Assembly: GCA_004764695.1 (NCBI GenBank)
Contig: SMSO01000015.1
Location: 68,234-94,417, forward strand
Direction: 5' to 3'
DNA: 26,184 nt
Source: Schizochytrium sp. TIO01
Taxonomy: Eukaryota; Sar; Bigyra; Thraustochytrida; Thraustochytriidae
The stretch's first letter is position 1. Each line of letters opens with the position of its first letter. Shown piece after piece: positions 3,285-7,936 of the stretch. The notes under the pieces were generated by a model. The model made no database searches and was not told where the DNA came from. It saw only the letters and a list, made by a program, of their open reading frames with translations. Both the position numbers and the translations under genes were made by a program.

Positions 3285-6200
3285 TCAGAACTTCTTATAT
3301 TCAAAAATATAAGGGCCTAGACATCCCAATGCTTCACTAAAGGCAACATTTGCAGCTTCCAACATATCAAGCTCTACTTTCTGCGCAGCAATATAGTCCT
3401 CTTTCGAGCTCTGCTCACCATTACTGCTAGCAAGCAGACTCTGTCCAGAACGACTGAGTTTCACTGAAGATGGCATAGAAAGTGCATTGTTTACAGCATG
3501 TATACAACCAAGCTCACGAGAGATCTGCTCAAGACGTGTCCTTCGTGTCTTTGCACAATAAATCTCTTCATTCAAGTCGAGCTCCTCGCGCATTTCATTC
3601 ATCCCCCGGGACATTCTAGTATCAGTAAAATCCAAATGACATCAACTCCGTTCGTCAGTTGACAATTTCACGTCATCAAAAGGCACCCACAGTATTGCCA
3701 GTACAGTTTCATTTCGTCGCTGATACTATCGTGCTCTCTGTTAGATCCACACTCAACCAAACAAACAATTCCACAACAAACTTGCAATGGCGCGAAGAAA
3801 GACATCGGCAAAACAGCACACTAGACAACCCACCACGCAACCAACCAACCAAGTCTCATGCACAAACAAGTCCACGAGCTACTGCTTAGACAACTTACTC
3901 AAGTGATTTCAGCGACCGGTTCTCTTTCAGCGCCGCAGCCACTGCCTTAGCGCCCTCTGAGCCGATATCGTTGCGTTGAAGACTGTCGATTGGATTGAAT
4001 GATGGCAAGCAATACATTACACGTTACATATTACAATAGATGCACGCATGCATGCATGGACATGAGTGATCTAGGTTGGCTTTCAGGATTTCATCTTTGT
4101 TGTGTTGTCATTTTGCTCTTTGTTCGATGGATGTATACTCACTCACACAGACAACTTATCCATCCATCCATCCATCCATCCATCCATCAAACAAACAAGA
4201 GATTGCATAAACTTGCAAAACAACACCGACCCACCCACCAAACAACAAACCAAGCATCATGTACAAACAAGTCCACGAGCTGCGGTGTTGCGTAGACAAC
4301 TTACGATAGTGATGTCAGCGACCGGTTCTCTTTCAGCGCTGCAGCCACTGTCTTGGCGCCCTCGTCGCCGATCTGGTTGCGGGAAAGACTGTCGATTTGA
4401 TTCAATGATGGCAAGCAATACATTACATTGCAATGCATTACATTGGATACATGCATGGACGTGAGTGATCTAGGTTGGCTTTCACCATTTATCTTTGTTG
4501 TGTTGTCATTTTGCTCTTTGTTCGATGGATGTATACTCACTCAAACAGACAACCCATCCATCCATCAAACAAACAAGCGATTGCATAAACTTGCAAAACA
4601 ACACCGTCCCACCCACCAAACAACAAACCAAGCATCATGTACAAACAAGTCCACGAGCAGCGCTGTTGCGTAGACAACTTACTTGAGTGATGTCAGCGAC
4701 CGGTTCTCTTTCAGCGCCGCACCCACTGCCTTAGCGCCCTCTGAGCCGATATTGTTCCACCAAAGACTGTCGATTTAATTGAATGATGGCAAGCAATACA
4801 TTACACGTTACATATTACAATAGATGCACGCATGCATGCATGGACGTGAGTGATCTAGGTTGGCTTTCAGCATTTATCTTTGTTGTGTTGTCATTTTTGC
4901 TCTTTGTTCGATGGATGTATACTCACTCAAACAGACAACTCATCAAACAAAAACCGATTGCATAAACTTGCTAAACAACACCAACCTAAGCACCATTTAA
5001 CAAACTAAGCATCATGTACAAACAAGTCCACGAGCAGCGCTGTTGCGTAGACAACTTACTTGAGTGATGTCAGCGACCTGTTCTCTTTCAGCGCTGCAGC
5101 CACTGTCTTGGCGCCCTCGTCGCCGATCTGGTTGTTTCTAAGACTGTCGATTTGATTCAATGATGGCAAGCAATACATTACATGTTACATGTTACAATAG
5201 ATGCACGCATGCATGCATGGACGTGAGTGATCTAGGTTGGCTTTTAGCATTTATCTTTGTTGTGTTGTCATTTTGCCTCTTTGTTCGATGGATGTATACT
5301 CACTCAAACAGACAACCCATCCATCCATCAAACAAACAAGCGATTGCATAAACTTGCAAACAACACCGTCCCACCCACCAAACAACAAACCAAGCATCAT
5401 GTACAAATAAGTCCACGAGCAGCGCTGTTGCGTAGACAACTTACAATAGTGATGTCAGCGACCGGTTCTCTTTCAGCGCCGCAGCCACTGCCTTGGCGCC
5501 CTCGTCGCCGATCTGGTTGCCAGAAAGACTGTCGATTTGATTGAATGATGGCAAGCAATACATTACATTGCAATGCATTACATTGGATACATGCATGGAC
5601 GTGAGTGATCTAGGTTGGCTTTCGGCATTTACCTTTGTTGTGTTGTCATTTTGCTCTTTGTTCGATGGATGTATACTCACTCAAACAGACAACTCATCCA
5701 TCCATCAAACAAACAAGAGATTGCATAAACTTGCAAAACAACACCGACCCACCCATCAAACAACAAACCAAGCATCATGTACAAACAAGTCCACGAGCTG
5801 CGGTGTTGCGAAGACAACTTACTATAGTGATGTCAGCGACCGGTTCTCTTTCAGCGCCGCAGCCACTGCCTTGGCGCCCTCGTCGCCGATTTTGTTGTAG
5901 GAAAGACTGTCGATTTGATTGAATGATGGCAAGCAATACATTACACGTTACATATTACAATAGATGCACGCATGCATGCATGGACGTGAGTGATCTAGGC
6001 TGGCTTTAACCATTTATCTTTGTTGTGTTGTCATTTTGCTCTTTGTTCGATGGATGTATACTCACTCAAACAGACAACTCATCCATCCATCCATCAAACA
6101 AACAAGCGATTGCATAAACTTGCAAAACAACACCGTCCCACCCACCAAACAACAAACTAAGCATCATGTACAAACAAGTCCACGAGCAGCGCTGTTGCGT

Positions 6201-7936
6201 AGACAACTTACTTGAGTGATGTCAGCGACCTGTTCTCTTTCAGCGCTGCAGCCACTGCCTTGGCGCCCTCTGAGCCGATCTCGTTGCTTCCAAGACTGTC
6301 GATTTGATTCAATGATGGCAACCAATACATTACATGTTACATATTACAATAGATGCACGCATGCATGCATGGACGTGAGTGATCTAGGTTGGCTTTCGGC
6401 ATTTACCTTTGTTGTGTTGTCATTTTGCTCTTTGTTCGATGGATGTATACTCACTCGAACAGACAACTCATTCATCCATCAAACAAACAAGAGATTGCAT
6501 AAACTTGCAAAACAACACCGACCCACCCATCAAACAACAAACCAAGCATCATGTACAAACAAGTCCACGAGCTGCGGTGTTGCGTAGACAACTTACAATA
6601 GTGATGTCAGCGACCGGTTCTCTTTCAGCGCCGCAGCCACTGCCTTGGCGCCCTCGTCGCCGATACCGTTGCCAGAAAGACTGTCGATTTGATTGAATCA
6701 TGGCAAGCAATACATTACACGTTACATATTACAATAGATGCACGCATATATGCATGGACGTGAGTGATCTAGGTTGGCTTTCACCATTTATCTTTGTTGT
6801 GTTGTCATTTTGCTCTTTGTTCGATGGATGTGTACTCACTCAAACAGACACCTCATCCATCCATCAAACAAACAAGAGATTGCATAAACTTGCAAAACAA
6901 CACCGACCCACCCACCAAACAACAAACCAACCATCATTTACAAACAAGTCCACGAGCTGCGGTGTTGCGTAGACAACTTACGATAGTGATGTCAGCGACC
7001 GGTTCTCTTTCAGCGCCGCAGCCACTGCCTTGGCGCCCTCGTCGCCGATCTGGTTGTTAAAAAGACTGTCGATTTGATTCAATGATGGCAAGCAATACAT
7101 TACACGTTACATATTACAATAGATGCACGCATGCATGCATGGACGTGAGTGATCTAGGTTGGCTTTTAGCATTTATCTTTGTTGTGTTGTCATTTTGCTC
7201 TTTGTTCGATGGATGTAGACTCACTCAAATAGACAACTTATCCATCGATCCATCCATCAAACAAACAAATGAACCAAAGATTGCATAAACTTGCAAAACA
7301 AGAACGACAAAAGCAACACCGTGCAAATAAAGCAAGCAAGCAAGCAAGCAAGCAAGCAAGCAAGCAAGCAAGCAAGCAAGCAAGCAAGCAAGCAAGCAAG
7401 CAAGCAAGCAAGCAAGCAAGCAAGCAAGCAAGCAAGCAAGCAAGCAAGCAAGCAAGCAAGCAAGCAAGCAAGCAAGCAAGCAAGCAAGCAAGCAAGCAAG
7501 CAAGCAAGCAAGCAAGCAAGCAAGCAAGCAAGCAAGCAAGCAAGCAAGCAAGCAAGCAAGCAAGCAAGCAAGCAAGCAAGCAAGCAAGCAAGCAAGCAAG
7601 CAAGCAAGCAAGCAAGCAAGCAAGCAAGCAAGCAAGCAAGCAAGCAAGCAAGCAAGCAAGCAAGCAAGCAAGCAAGCAAGCAAGCAAGCAAGCAAGCAAG
7701 CAAGCAAGCAAGCAAGCAAGCAAGCAAGCAAGCAAGCAAGCAAGCAAGCAAGCAAGCAAGCAAGCAAGCAAGCAAGCAAGCAAGCAAGCAAGCAAGCAAG
7801 CAAGGCAGCAAGCAAGCAAGCAAGCAAGCAGGTGATCGGGCGAGCAAGCAGGTGATCGAGCGAGCGTGTTAACTTACCCTAATGTTGTAGCGCCATTCTG
7901 AAGCTCTTCAAGGGCATCGACAACCGCATACCACAT
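3285..7936 (-). CDS. LRR protein with nine near-identical one-exon repeats
   Basis: Predicted spliced gene, 5' to 3': exon 1 7936-7878; LRR exons 7065-6982, 6680-6597, 6295-6212, 5906-5823, 5528-5445, 5143-5060, 4766-4683, 4388-4305, 3982-3899; last exon 3615-3285. Total 1146 nt, 381 residues, frame closing at a TGA. Every LRR exon is exactly 84 nt (28 codons), lies between a GTAAG donor and a CGACAG acceptor, and all ten introns are phase 2. The repeats are of the ribonuclease-inhibitor-like class (framework LxxNxIGxEGAKxVxAALKENRSLTSL). Differences concentrate at the residue before the first Leu and the x positions of LxxNxI. The ATG at 7936 is chosen because an in-frame TAA lies just upstream and it opens MWYAVVDALEELQNG, which resembles the start of the divergent ROCO neighbour. 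The last exon encodes about 110 residues of unrecognised, partly charged sequence. No signal peptide or membrane segment is visible, so the protein is probably intracellular. Role in recognition is inferred; exon structure is strong, terminal exons less so. Confidence 0.82.
3616..7305 (-). repeat. tandem array of exon-intron units, about 377-406 bp each
   Basis: Nine units of one 84-nt LRR exon plus one intron of about 293-322 bp follow one another; exon-to-exon spacings on the plus strand are 406, 378, 377, 385, 378, 389, 385 and 385. Intron sequence is nearly as conserved as the exon, including an ATCC-rich microsatellite, a conserved stretch of AAC-rich words and a GCATGCATGCATGG-like word. 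Introns at 4389-4682 and 5529-5822 carry a distinct variant (ATTGCAATGCATT in place of the GTTACATATTACAA type). The outermost copies (3616-3898 and past 7066) are more diverged. This indicates recent tandem duplication or continuing gene conversion. Confidence 0.93.
7330..7804. repeat. (CAAG)n microsatellite, about 119 copies
   Basis: 475 bp of uninterrupted AAGC/CAAG tetranucleotide. It lies in the first intron (7066-7877) of the minus-strand LRR gene, so its transcript would contain (CUUG)n. Because the unit has no stop codon in any frame and its length is not a multiple of three, it produces long spurious open frames on both strands (KQAS-type on plus, LACL-type on minus). Exact copy number in the genome may differ from this assembly. 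Confidence 0.97.
7805..7866. repeat. degenerate edge of CAAG array with 20-bp tandem duplicate
   Basis: The pure array decays into GCAAG units followed by two adjacent 20-bp copies (7823-7842 and 7843-7862) that differ at one base and each contain GGTGATCG. The block ends 11 bp from the predicted 5' splice site of exon 1 of the minus-strand LRR gene (GT at 7877-7876). Confidence 0.8.

What the first reader, a model, noticed from the sequence alone, without database searches (positions are those of the whole stretch)
3899..7065. Hypervariable concave-face residues in otherwise near-identical LRR exons
Read 5' to 3' on the minus strand, the nine repeats give, as x-L-x-x-N-x-I: G-LFNNQI, S-LSGNGI, F-LGSNEI, N-LSYNKI, Y-LSGNQI, F-LRNNQI, N-LWWNNI, N-LSRNQI, S-LQRNDI. 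The other 24 framework positions change only at a few sites (D/S after IG, A/T and A/G in the helix, one T/K). Introns are nearly identical too. So differences concentrate at the codons predicted to be solvent-exposed on the ligand-binding beta sheet, the opposite of what drift plus gene conversion would give. This resembles diversifying selection in immune LRR receptors, and exon-based LRR diversity has been described for brown-algal ROCO genes. A recognition role is inference.
Basis: partly seen in the sequence, partly recalled or inferred. Interest (0 to 1): 0.92.

Follow-up and report, generated by a model that had tools for sequence, protein, structure and literature searches.

The report
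Hypervariable leucine-rich-repeat exon gene family
A microbial eukaryote carries dozens of genes built from interchangeable repeat exons in which mainly the four predicted binding-surface codons differ, as expected for a recognition repertoire, and the same kind of cassette also precedes an immune-type signalling domain.

Summary
Confirmed, and larger than the window. The nine exons are each 84 bp, phase 2, one 28-residue ribonuclease-inhibitor-type LRR. Related tail exons were found at 40 places, with 40 of 102 candidates scored. Across 210 exon-intron units, diversity per site is 0.59 at the x codons, 0.05 at silent framework positions and 0.06 in introns. None of 267 exons fitting the splice rule has a stop. 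One pair of homologous nine-exon arrays (C25/C27) differs at 2.2% of intron, 9.6% of silent framework and 47% of x sites; near-identical copies differ at no x site. Best reading: recognition proteins diversified by short-tract exchange among repeats under strong diversifying selection. The window gene is not a ROCO gene; it ends in a ~105-aa tail with transcribed relatives. In L021 the same cassettes precede ROC-COR-TIR, which favours an immune role. Closest known: brown-algal LRR-ROCO (72-bp) and Tetrahymena (90-bp) LRR exons. Ligand, strain variation, structure and organism remain unknown.

The parts
7878..7936 (-). first coding exon, MWYAVVDALEELQNGATTL + split codon (most other copies begin MSDHP... 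or similar; the window copy and its copy L009 differ from them upstream, so the start codon is uncertain)
7329..7835 (.). (CAAG)n microsatellite inside intron 1; a GCTT repeat follows exon 1 in the other copies aligned
   Evidence: read
6982..7065 (-). LRR exon 1 (84 bp), G-LFNNQI
6597..6680 (-). LRR exon 2, S-LSGNGI
6212..6295 (-). LRR exon 3, F-LGSNEI
5823..5906 (-). LRR exon 4, N-LSYNKI
5445..5528 (-). LRR exon 5, Y-LSGNQI
5060..5143 (-). LRR exon 6, F-LRNNQI
4683..4766 (-). LRR exon 7, N-LWWNNI
4305..4388 (-). LRR exon 8, N-LSRNQI
3899..3982 (-). LRR exon 9, S-LQRNDI
3285..3615 (-). last exon: ~105-aa C-terminal tail (stop 3285-3287), conserved in the family, no significant Pfam or PDB match, four MMETSP transcript relatives

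Best explanation
The window holds one member (predicted 381 aa) of a large family of LRR genes: a ~20-aa cap, 2 to 20 interchangeable 84-bp phase-2 exons (in the tail-type arrays fetched), each giving one 28-residue RI-type LRR, and a ~105-aa tail. In each repeat the split codon and codons 3, 4 and 6 are predicted to face the concave sheet. Shown: these codons are near saturation while silent sites and introns are not; the frame is kept; variants recur across loci and are mostly in linkage equilibrium; in one pair of homologous arrays the exons differ as if re-drawn while introns and flanks do not; blocks of repeats are duplicated. Inferred: short-tract ectopic gene conversion and unequal exchange between loci, many near contig ends, supply new combinations, and strong diversifying selection keeps those that change the binding surface. 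Inferred with less weight: the proteins recognise diverse partners, most likely microbial or viral, because closely similar cassettes in this genome precede ROC-COR-TIR, and TIR is a signalling domain used in immunity. Tail-type genes would be recognition proteins in their own right, a cassette reservoir for the TIR receptors, or both.
For: x pi 0.588 vs silent framework 0.053 and intron 0.060. No stop in the 267 exons that fit the splice rule; 0 of 801 x codons against about 40 expected from base frequencies. x state independent of intron distance: of 110 pairs with introns under 1% apart 83 differ at codons 3, 4 and 6 alike, 4 at none (pairs are not independent). C25/C27: x 47/99, introns 53/2389, flank 13/1104; silent framework 17/176 vs intron, p = 2e-6 (2 of the 17 are the codon-28 base that moves with the split codon). 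133 of 22,366 pairs chosen for both introns under 2%: x at 90% and framework at 54% of the divergence of all pairs. Codons 9 and 16 unlinked; exon-intron r2 at permutation level. Array growth by blocks: the C24-end array (L046) has 16 repeats in the piece fetched, LLNNRI six times, against 10 in its C7 relative. Tail relatives among MMETSP transcripts. ROC-COR-TIR after the L021 array, Pfam TIR_2 5e-13; four paralogues of that reading frame, 70-90% identical, beside further arrays. L021 introns under 1% from introns of tail-type arrays.
Against: Near-identical copies do not differ at x sites: window vs L009 0/99 with 28 intron differences, C30 vs C5 no exon difference in about 5 kb, C23 vs C7 0/66, so change is not continuous in every copy. 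The strong exon/intron contrast between homologous arrays rests on one pair; in the more diverged C7/C24 pair x is 49/98 but introns also differ at 168/2698. The split codon is at about pool level although framework bases a few positions upstream and the intron beside it are not, which needs very short tracts or another process. No donor was found among fetched loci for the difference cluster between window and L009. Not every exon site is unlinked: codon 3-codon 9 and codon 4-codon 28 are weakly associated (4 and 3 of 500 shuffles reach the value). No ligand, infection, strain or structure data. The tail transcripts found do not show spliced LRR exons, but that search could only return proteins of similar length to the tail.
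Confidence: 0.68

Rival explanations
1. Codon-targeted diversification: a dedicated templated or mutagenic process rewrites the x codons (and codons 9, 16) directly, in germ line or soma, without moving neighbouring bases.
For: In pairs with both introns under 2%, x, codon 9, codon 16 and the 3-base split-codon block are at 90-95% of the divergence of all pairs, while framework bases at exon offsets 70-80 and intron bases +1 to +15 are at 14-19%; codons 6 and 9, six bases between them, are unlinked; codon 9 is TCA or GAC with few intermediates.
Against: Other framework stretches are also raised in those pairs (83% at offsets 25-40, 63% at 40-55). Many residues have one dominant codon per position (c4 Gly GGC 70 of 72, c6 Asp GAT 39 of 39), so variants look inherited and redistributed; exceptions exist (c3 Ser uses four codons). 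Silent framework sites are raised in C25/C27. Recent copies have identical x codons. The APOBEC_N search was empty but uninformative, as its controls did not ring.
Confidence: 0.13
2. The repertoire serves self/non-self or mating-type recognition, not defence.
For: Hypervariable LRRs in many copies suit allorecognition equally (inference); there are no defence data here.
Against: TIR in the L021 gene leans to immunity or cell death, not decisively.
Confidence: 0.17
3. Relaxed constraint: x positions are simply unconstrained and the framework is constrained.
For: x positions are variable in RI-type LRR proteins generally (consensus of 17 chosen relatives), so the amino-acid pattern alone proves nothing.
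Against: Unconstrained sites should diverge like introns and silent sites (0.05-0.06), not 0.59, and would gather stops; 0 of 801 seen.
Confidence: 0.03
4. Assembly artefact in repeat arrays (chimeric or collapsed repeats), above all for C25/C27, which are small contigs.
For: Both contigs are short (57 kb, 20 kb) and repetitive; upstream homology between them stops after 599 bp.
Against: The diversity signal is in 22 of 24 arrays, many on Mb-size contigs; errors would not be in frame and free of stops; beyond the array 599 bp upstream and 2,424 columns downstream align at 94% and 97%.
Confidence: 0.04

Closest known systems
Brown-algal LRR-ROCO genes (PMC11378527: abstract, sections 11 and 15, and passages; Zambounis et al. 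2012 only as cited there)
   Same: One LRR per exon, phase-2 introns, exon shuffling, four concave sites under diversifying selection, LRR-only relatives proposed as a reservoir.
   Different: 72-bp exons and 23-aa repeats there, 84 bp and 28-aa RI-type here; the window gene has a tail instead of ROC-COR; a ROCO member here carries TIR, whereas that paper gives LRR-ROC-COR as the only brown-algal form (it does list a TPR-ROCO-TIR in the red alga Chondrus, so ROCO-TIR fusions as such are known). My reading of their site numbering puts one of their four sites at our conserved codon 27, and our codon 6 outside their four (inference).
Tetrahymena 90-bp-exon LRR genes (PMC6564038: abstract and 12 passages)
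   Same: Tandem arrays of one-LRR exons of exact length, phase-2 introns, ~347-bp units in T. thermophila, young copies near chromosome ends, ectopic recombination among exons.
   Different: 90 bp; over 1,000 LRR genes in most species; most reported under purifying selection by Ka/Ks; linked to a LINE-like element (not tested here); a different lineage.
Lamprey/hagfish VLRs (recalled, no call)
   Same: LRR modules with variable concave residues built by copying from cassettes.
   Different: Somatic assembly and cell-surface or secreted proteins; neither shown here.
RI/NLRC3-type LRR proteins (LRR_6)
   Same: 28-residue repeat and framework.
   Different: Tail not shared by the listed relatives, whose matches cover 46-87% of the query; exon structure of the relatives not examined.

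Membership tests
RI-type LRR (PF13516 LRR_6) | 28-29-residue LxxLxLxxNxI repeats | tested here: met
   Pfam LRR_6 1.7e-43, 5 stretches; RI and NLRP chains among PDB hits
Brown-algal LRR-ROCO | one LRR per exon with phase-2 introns | tested here: met
   of 251 profile hits 245 give exons of exactly 84 bp, 1 of 85 bp, 5 did not fit the splice rule used; splicing itself not observed
Brown-algal LRR-ROCO | 72-bp exons | tested here: not met
   84 bp
Brown-algal LRR-ROCO | ROC-COR after the LRRs | tested here: not met
   window gene ends in the ~105-aa tail; met in another locus, L021
Brown-algal LRR-ROCO | diversifying selection at concave sites | tested here: met
   by diversity against silent and intron sites, not by PAML; concave position taken from the LRR consensus, no model made
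Brown-algal LRR-ROCO | alternative splicing of LRR exons | not testable with these tools
   no reads
LRR-ROC-COR-TIR receptor | Roc, COR and TIR domains after the array | tested here: not met
   not in the window gene; in L021 Roc 3e-18, COR-A 1e-11, TIR_2 5e-13; the four paralogues were matched over that frame but not scanned with Pfam
Tetrahymena 90-bp LRR genes | exactly 90-bp exons | tested here: not met
   84 bp
Tetrahymena 90-bp LRR genes | young copies enriched near chromosome ends | tested here: met
   15 of 27 tail loci on contigs over 1 Mb lie within 60 kb of a contig end, a zone of about 2.5% of those contigs; one of the 15 is a fragment; 13 further loci are on smaller contigs and were not counted. 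Age of copies not graded.
Tetrahymena 90-bp LRR genes | LINE-like element beside arrays | not tested
   no call addressed it
VLR-like somatic assembly | somatic copying with cytidine deaminase | tested here: inconclusive
   APOBEC_N search empty, controls did not ring; somatic change not testable

The most novel reading that the evidence does not exclude
A microbial eukaryote runs a repertoire generator: a genome-wide pool of LRR exon cassettes from which exons, or single surface codons, are re-drawn by templated exchange far faster than the introns around them change (about 20-fold in the one homologous pair seen, C25/C27), feeding both LRR-tail proteins and LRR-ROC-COR-TIR receptors. That would be an anticipatory immune repertoire outside animals, with exon- or codon-precise exchange as its engine.
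Probability: 0.22. Interest if true: 0.93.

Novelty: new variant of a known kind. Interest (0 to 1): 0.74.

Why it matters
With brown algae and Tetrahymena it would be a further independent-looking case of one-repeat-per-exon phase-2 LRR arrays, now with 28-residue RI-type repeats. The DNA-level contrast is clean: silent sites and introns nearly constant, surface codons saturated. It also joins a hypervariable cassette pool to TIR signalling in the same genome, and homologous arrays such as C25/C27 make the question 'how is the variation made' directly testable by long-read sequencing of clones and strains.

Tried and rejected
Relaxed constraint was rejected. A plain mutation hotspot was rejected because the silent third bases of codons 5 and 7, between and beside the x codons, are ordinary, pi 0.038 and 0.056; the exception is the codon 28 third base (0.667). 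Swapping of whole exons alone does not fit either: framework near the 3' end of the exon follows the intron. A donor for the window/L009 difference cluster was not found among fetched loci. In one search one anchor was not unique; that comparison was discarded and redone. Naming the organism failed: the kinase at 18125-19927 is reported 100% identical to an MMETSP/EukProt protein shown without a species name, next best 39%; Nannochloropsis, Chrysoparadoxa and Ectocarpus among the hits suggest, weakly, a stramenopile. Pattern searches for TTTAGGG and TTAGGG repeats were empty. Paper searches (listings with the starts of abstracts, capped, open-licence library only) showed no report of this family.
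Full report
Observation. The nine exons are at the stated places; each is 84 bp, phase 2, one 28-residue LRR.

Gene model. Minus strand: a first exon (7878-7936), nine LRR exons, and a last exon (3285-3615) coding a ~105-aa tail, 381 aa in all. Most other copies aligned begin MSDHP or similar; the window copy and L009 differ from them upstream, so the start is uncertain. The tail has no significant Pfam match (best E 0.08, each family in 1 of 9 members) and no PDB match at E <= 1. 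A profile of nine tails found 5 relatives at E <= 0.001 among 3,259 candidates, four from MMETSP and one from a JGI source. So tail sequences are transcribed in this or a close organism. That search only admits proteins of about the length of the tail, so it cannot show LRR exons in the same transcript; the search with the whole protein found no close full-length relative (best 53% identity, LRR part).

Family. One search gave 385 DNA matches with 33 of 66 candidates scored, a lower bound. The tail exon matched at 40 places, one of them a fragment at a contig end, with 40 of 102 candidates scored; the first exon at 36 places counting one double match once and one partial. Some are near-identical copies of each other, so the number of distinct genes is smaller. 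Of 27 tail loci on contigs over 1 Mb, 15 lie within 60 kb of a contig end, a zone of about 2.5% of those contigs; 13 loci on smaller contigs were left out. I fetched 20 loci of 10 kb and smaller pieces later. In the 20 loci plus the window a profile gave 251 hits: 245 exons of 84 bp, one of 85 bp with a shifted frame, five not fitting my splice rule. Two non-family exons and the nine of L009, a copy of the window array, were dropped before counting, leaving 234.

Diversity. With 210 units that have a following intron: introns 0.060, third positions of 13 framework codons 0.053, framework first and second positions 0.038, x sites 0.588. Position 9 (Ser/Asp) and position 16 (Ala/Gly) are also polymorphic. 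Per array, 22 of 24 have x over three times intron; L050 and L051 do not. None of the 267 exons that fit the splice rule has a stop.

How the variation moves. Intron distance does not predict x state: of 110 pairs with introns under 1% apart, 83 differ at codons 3, 4 and 6 alike and 4 at none. Of 28 feature pairs tested within or beside exons, strong association is confined to codons 3-4, weaker 3-6 and 4-6, and codon 28 with the split codon; codon 3 with 9 and codon 4 with 28 are weakly associated; codons 9, 16 and the exon end are unlinked to each other. Intron sites keep some association over tens of bases, exon-intron pairs none above permutation. The clearest case is C25 against C27: both nine exons, collinear, flank 13/1104, introns 53/2389, framework 40/657, x 47/99; silent framework 17/176. 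Further flank: 33/599 upstream, where homology then stops, and 69/2424 downstream, where the C25 piece held runs out. Whether they are alleles or paralogues is not known. Other pairs go the other way: window against L009 has no x difference in 99 sites, with 28 intron differences of which 24 sit in one cluster with three framework differences and an indel; C30 against C5 and C23 against C7 are almost identical. C7 against C24 is more diverged: x 49/98, introns 168/2698, and the C24-end array shows block duplication. Taking pairs chosen for both introns under 2% (133 of 22,366, 14 arrays, not independent), x is at 90% and framework at 54% of the divergence of all pairs; the low intron value is by choice. 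Along the exon the framework ratio is uneven: 1.29 at offsets 0-4, 0.31 at 10-22, 0.83 at 25-40, 0.63 at 40-55, 0.38 at 55-70, 0.14 at 70-81. I read this as short-tract exchange between repeats plus selection that keeps surface changes; the split codon, re-drawn without its neighbours, is the least comfortable fact for that reading.

Link to ROCO and TIR. The plus-strand neighbour (about 9.4-13.6 kb) has Roc (8.6e-08) and COR-A (2.2e-07, below Pfam's cut-off). A pattern scan that accepts only multiples of three found 13 LRR-like exons there, 12 of 84 bp and one of 87, phase 2, diverged throughout. In L021 the hypervariable array is followed, in frame by my reading of the splice site, by an 854-aa reading frame with Roc, COR-A and TIR_2. 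Four paralogues of that frame, 70-90% identical, lie beside further arrays; one has a stop in frame; they were not scanned with Pfam. Introns of L021 come within 1% of introns in tail-type arrays, so the two kinds exchange or share recent ancestry.

Known relatives and novelty. Brown-algal LRR-ROCO genes share the exon logic and the selected face, and their authors mention LRR-only relatives as a possible reservoir (PMC11378527, abstract, sections 11 and 15 and passages). Tetrahymena has 90-bp phase-2 LRR exons, the youngest near chromosome ends and centromeres (PMC6564038, abstract and passages). This family is a new variant: 84 bp, RI-type repeat, a tail without known relatives outside close transcripts, a TIR-bearing ROCO member, and one homologous pair in which exons changed far more than introns.

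Noticed in passing
window 9376-13559 (+): Head-to-head LRR-ROC-COR gene; 12 of 13 LRR-like exons found by a multiple-of-three pattern are 84 bp, phase 2, with short unrelated introns and divergence throughout: perhaps an older relative of the cassette family.
   Followed up: partly
window 6098-6247: 27 substitutions and one indel of the 42 differences between the window region and its 99.3% copy L009 sit in this 150-bp stretch, spanning an intron end and part of exon 3; looks like a conversion tract, but no donor among fetched loci.
   Followed up: partly
window codon 28 third base with the split codon, all nine exons: A silent base varies with the split x codon as a 3-base block (mainly ATC, CAA, TGA in the family) although bases just upstream and in the intron do not; unexplained.
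   Followed up: partly
window 7329-7835: Long (CAAG)n tract in intron 1; the same repeat follows exon 1 in the other copies aligned.
   Followed up: no
window 18125-19927 (+): Intronless FHA-kinase resembling Chk2, reported 100% identical to an MMETSP/EukProt protein, so the species or a very close one has a public transcriptome.
   Followed up: partly
L046: Array at the end of C24 with repeats duplicated in blocks (LLNNRI six times), compared with relatives on C7 and C23.
   Followed up: partly
L030, L033, L038 starts: 3 of 13 contig starts fetched begin with TTAGG-type telomere repeats.
   Followed up: no
genome-wide: Many further matches to the TIR region of the L021 frame alone, without ROC-COR, scattered in the genome.
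   Followed up: no
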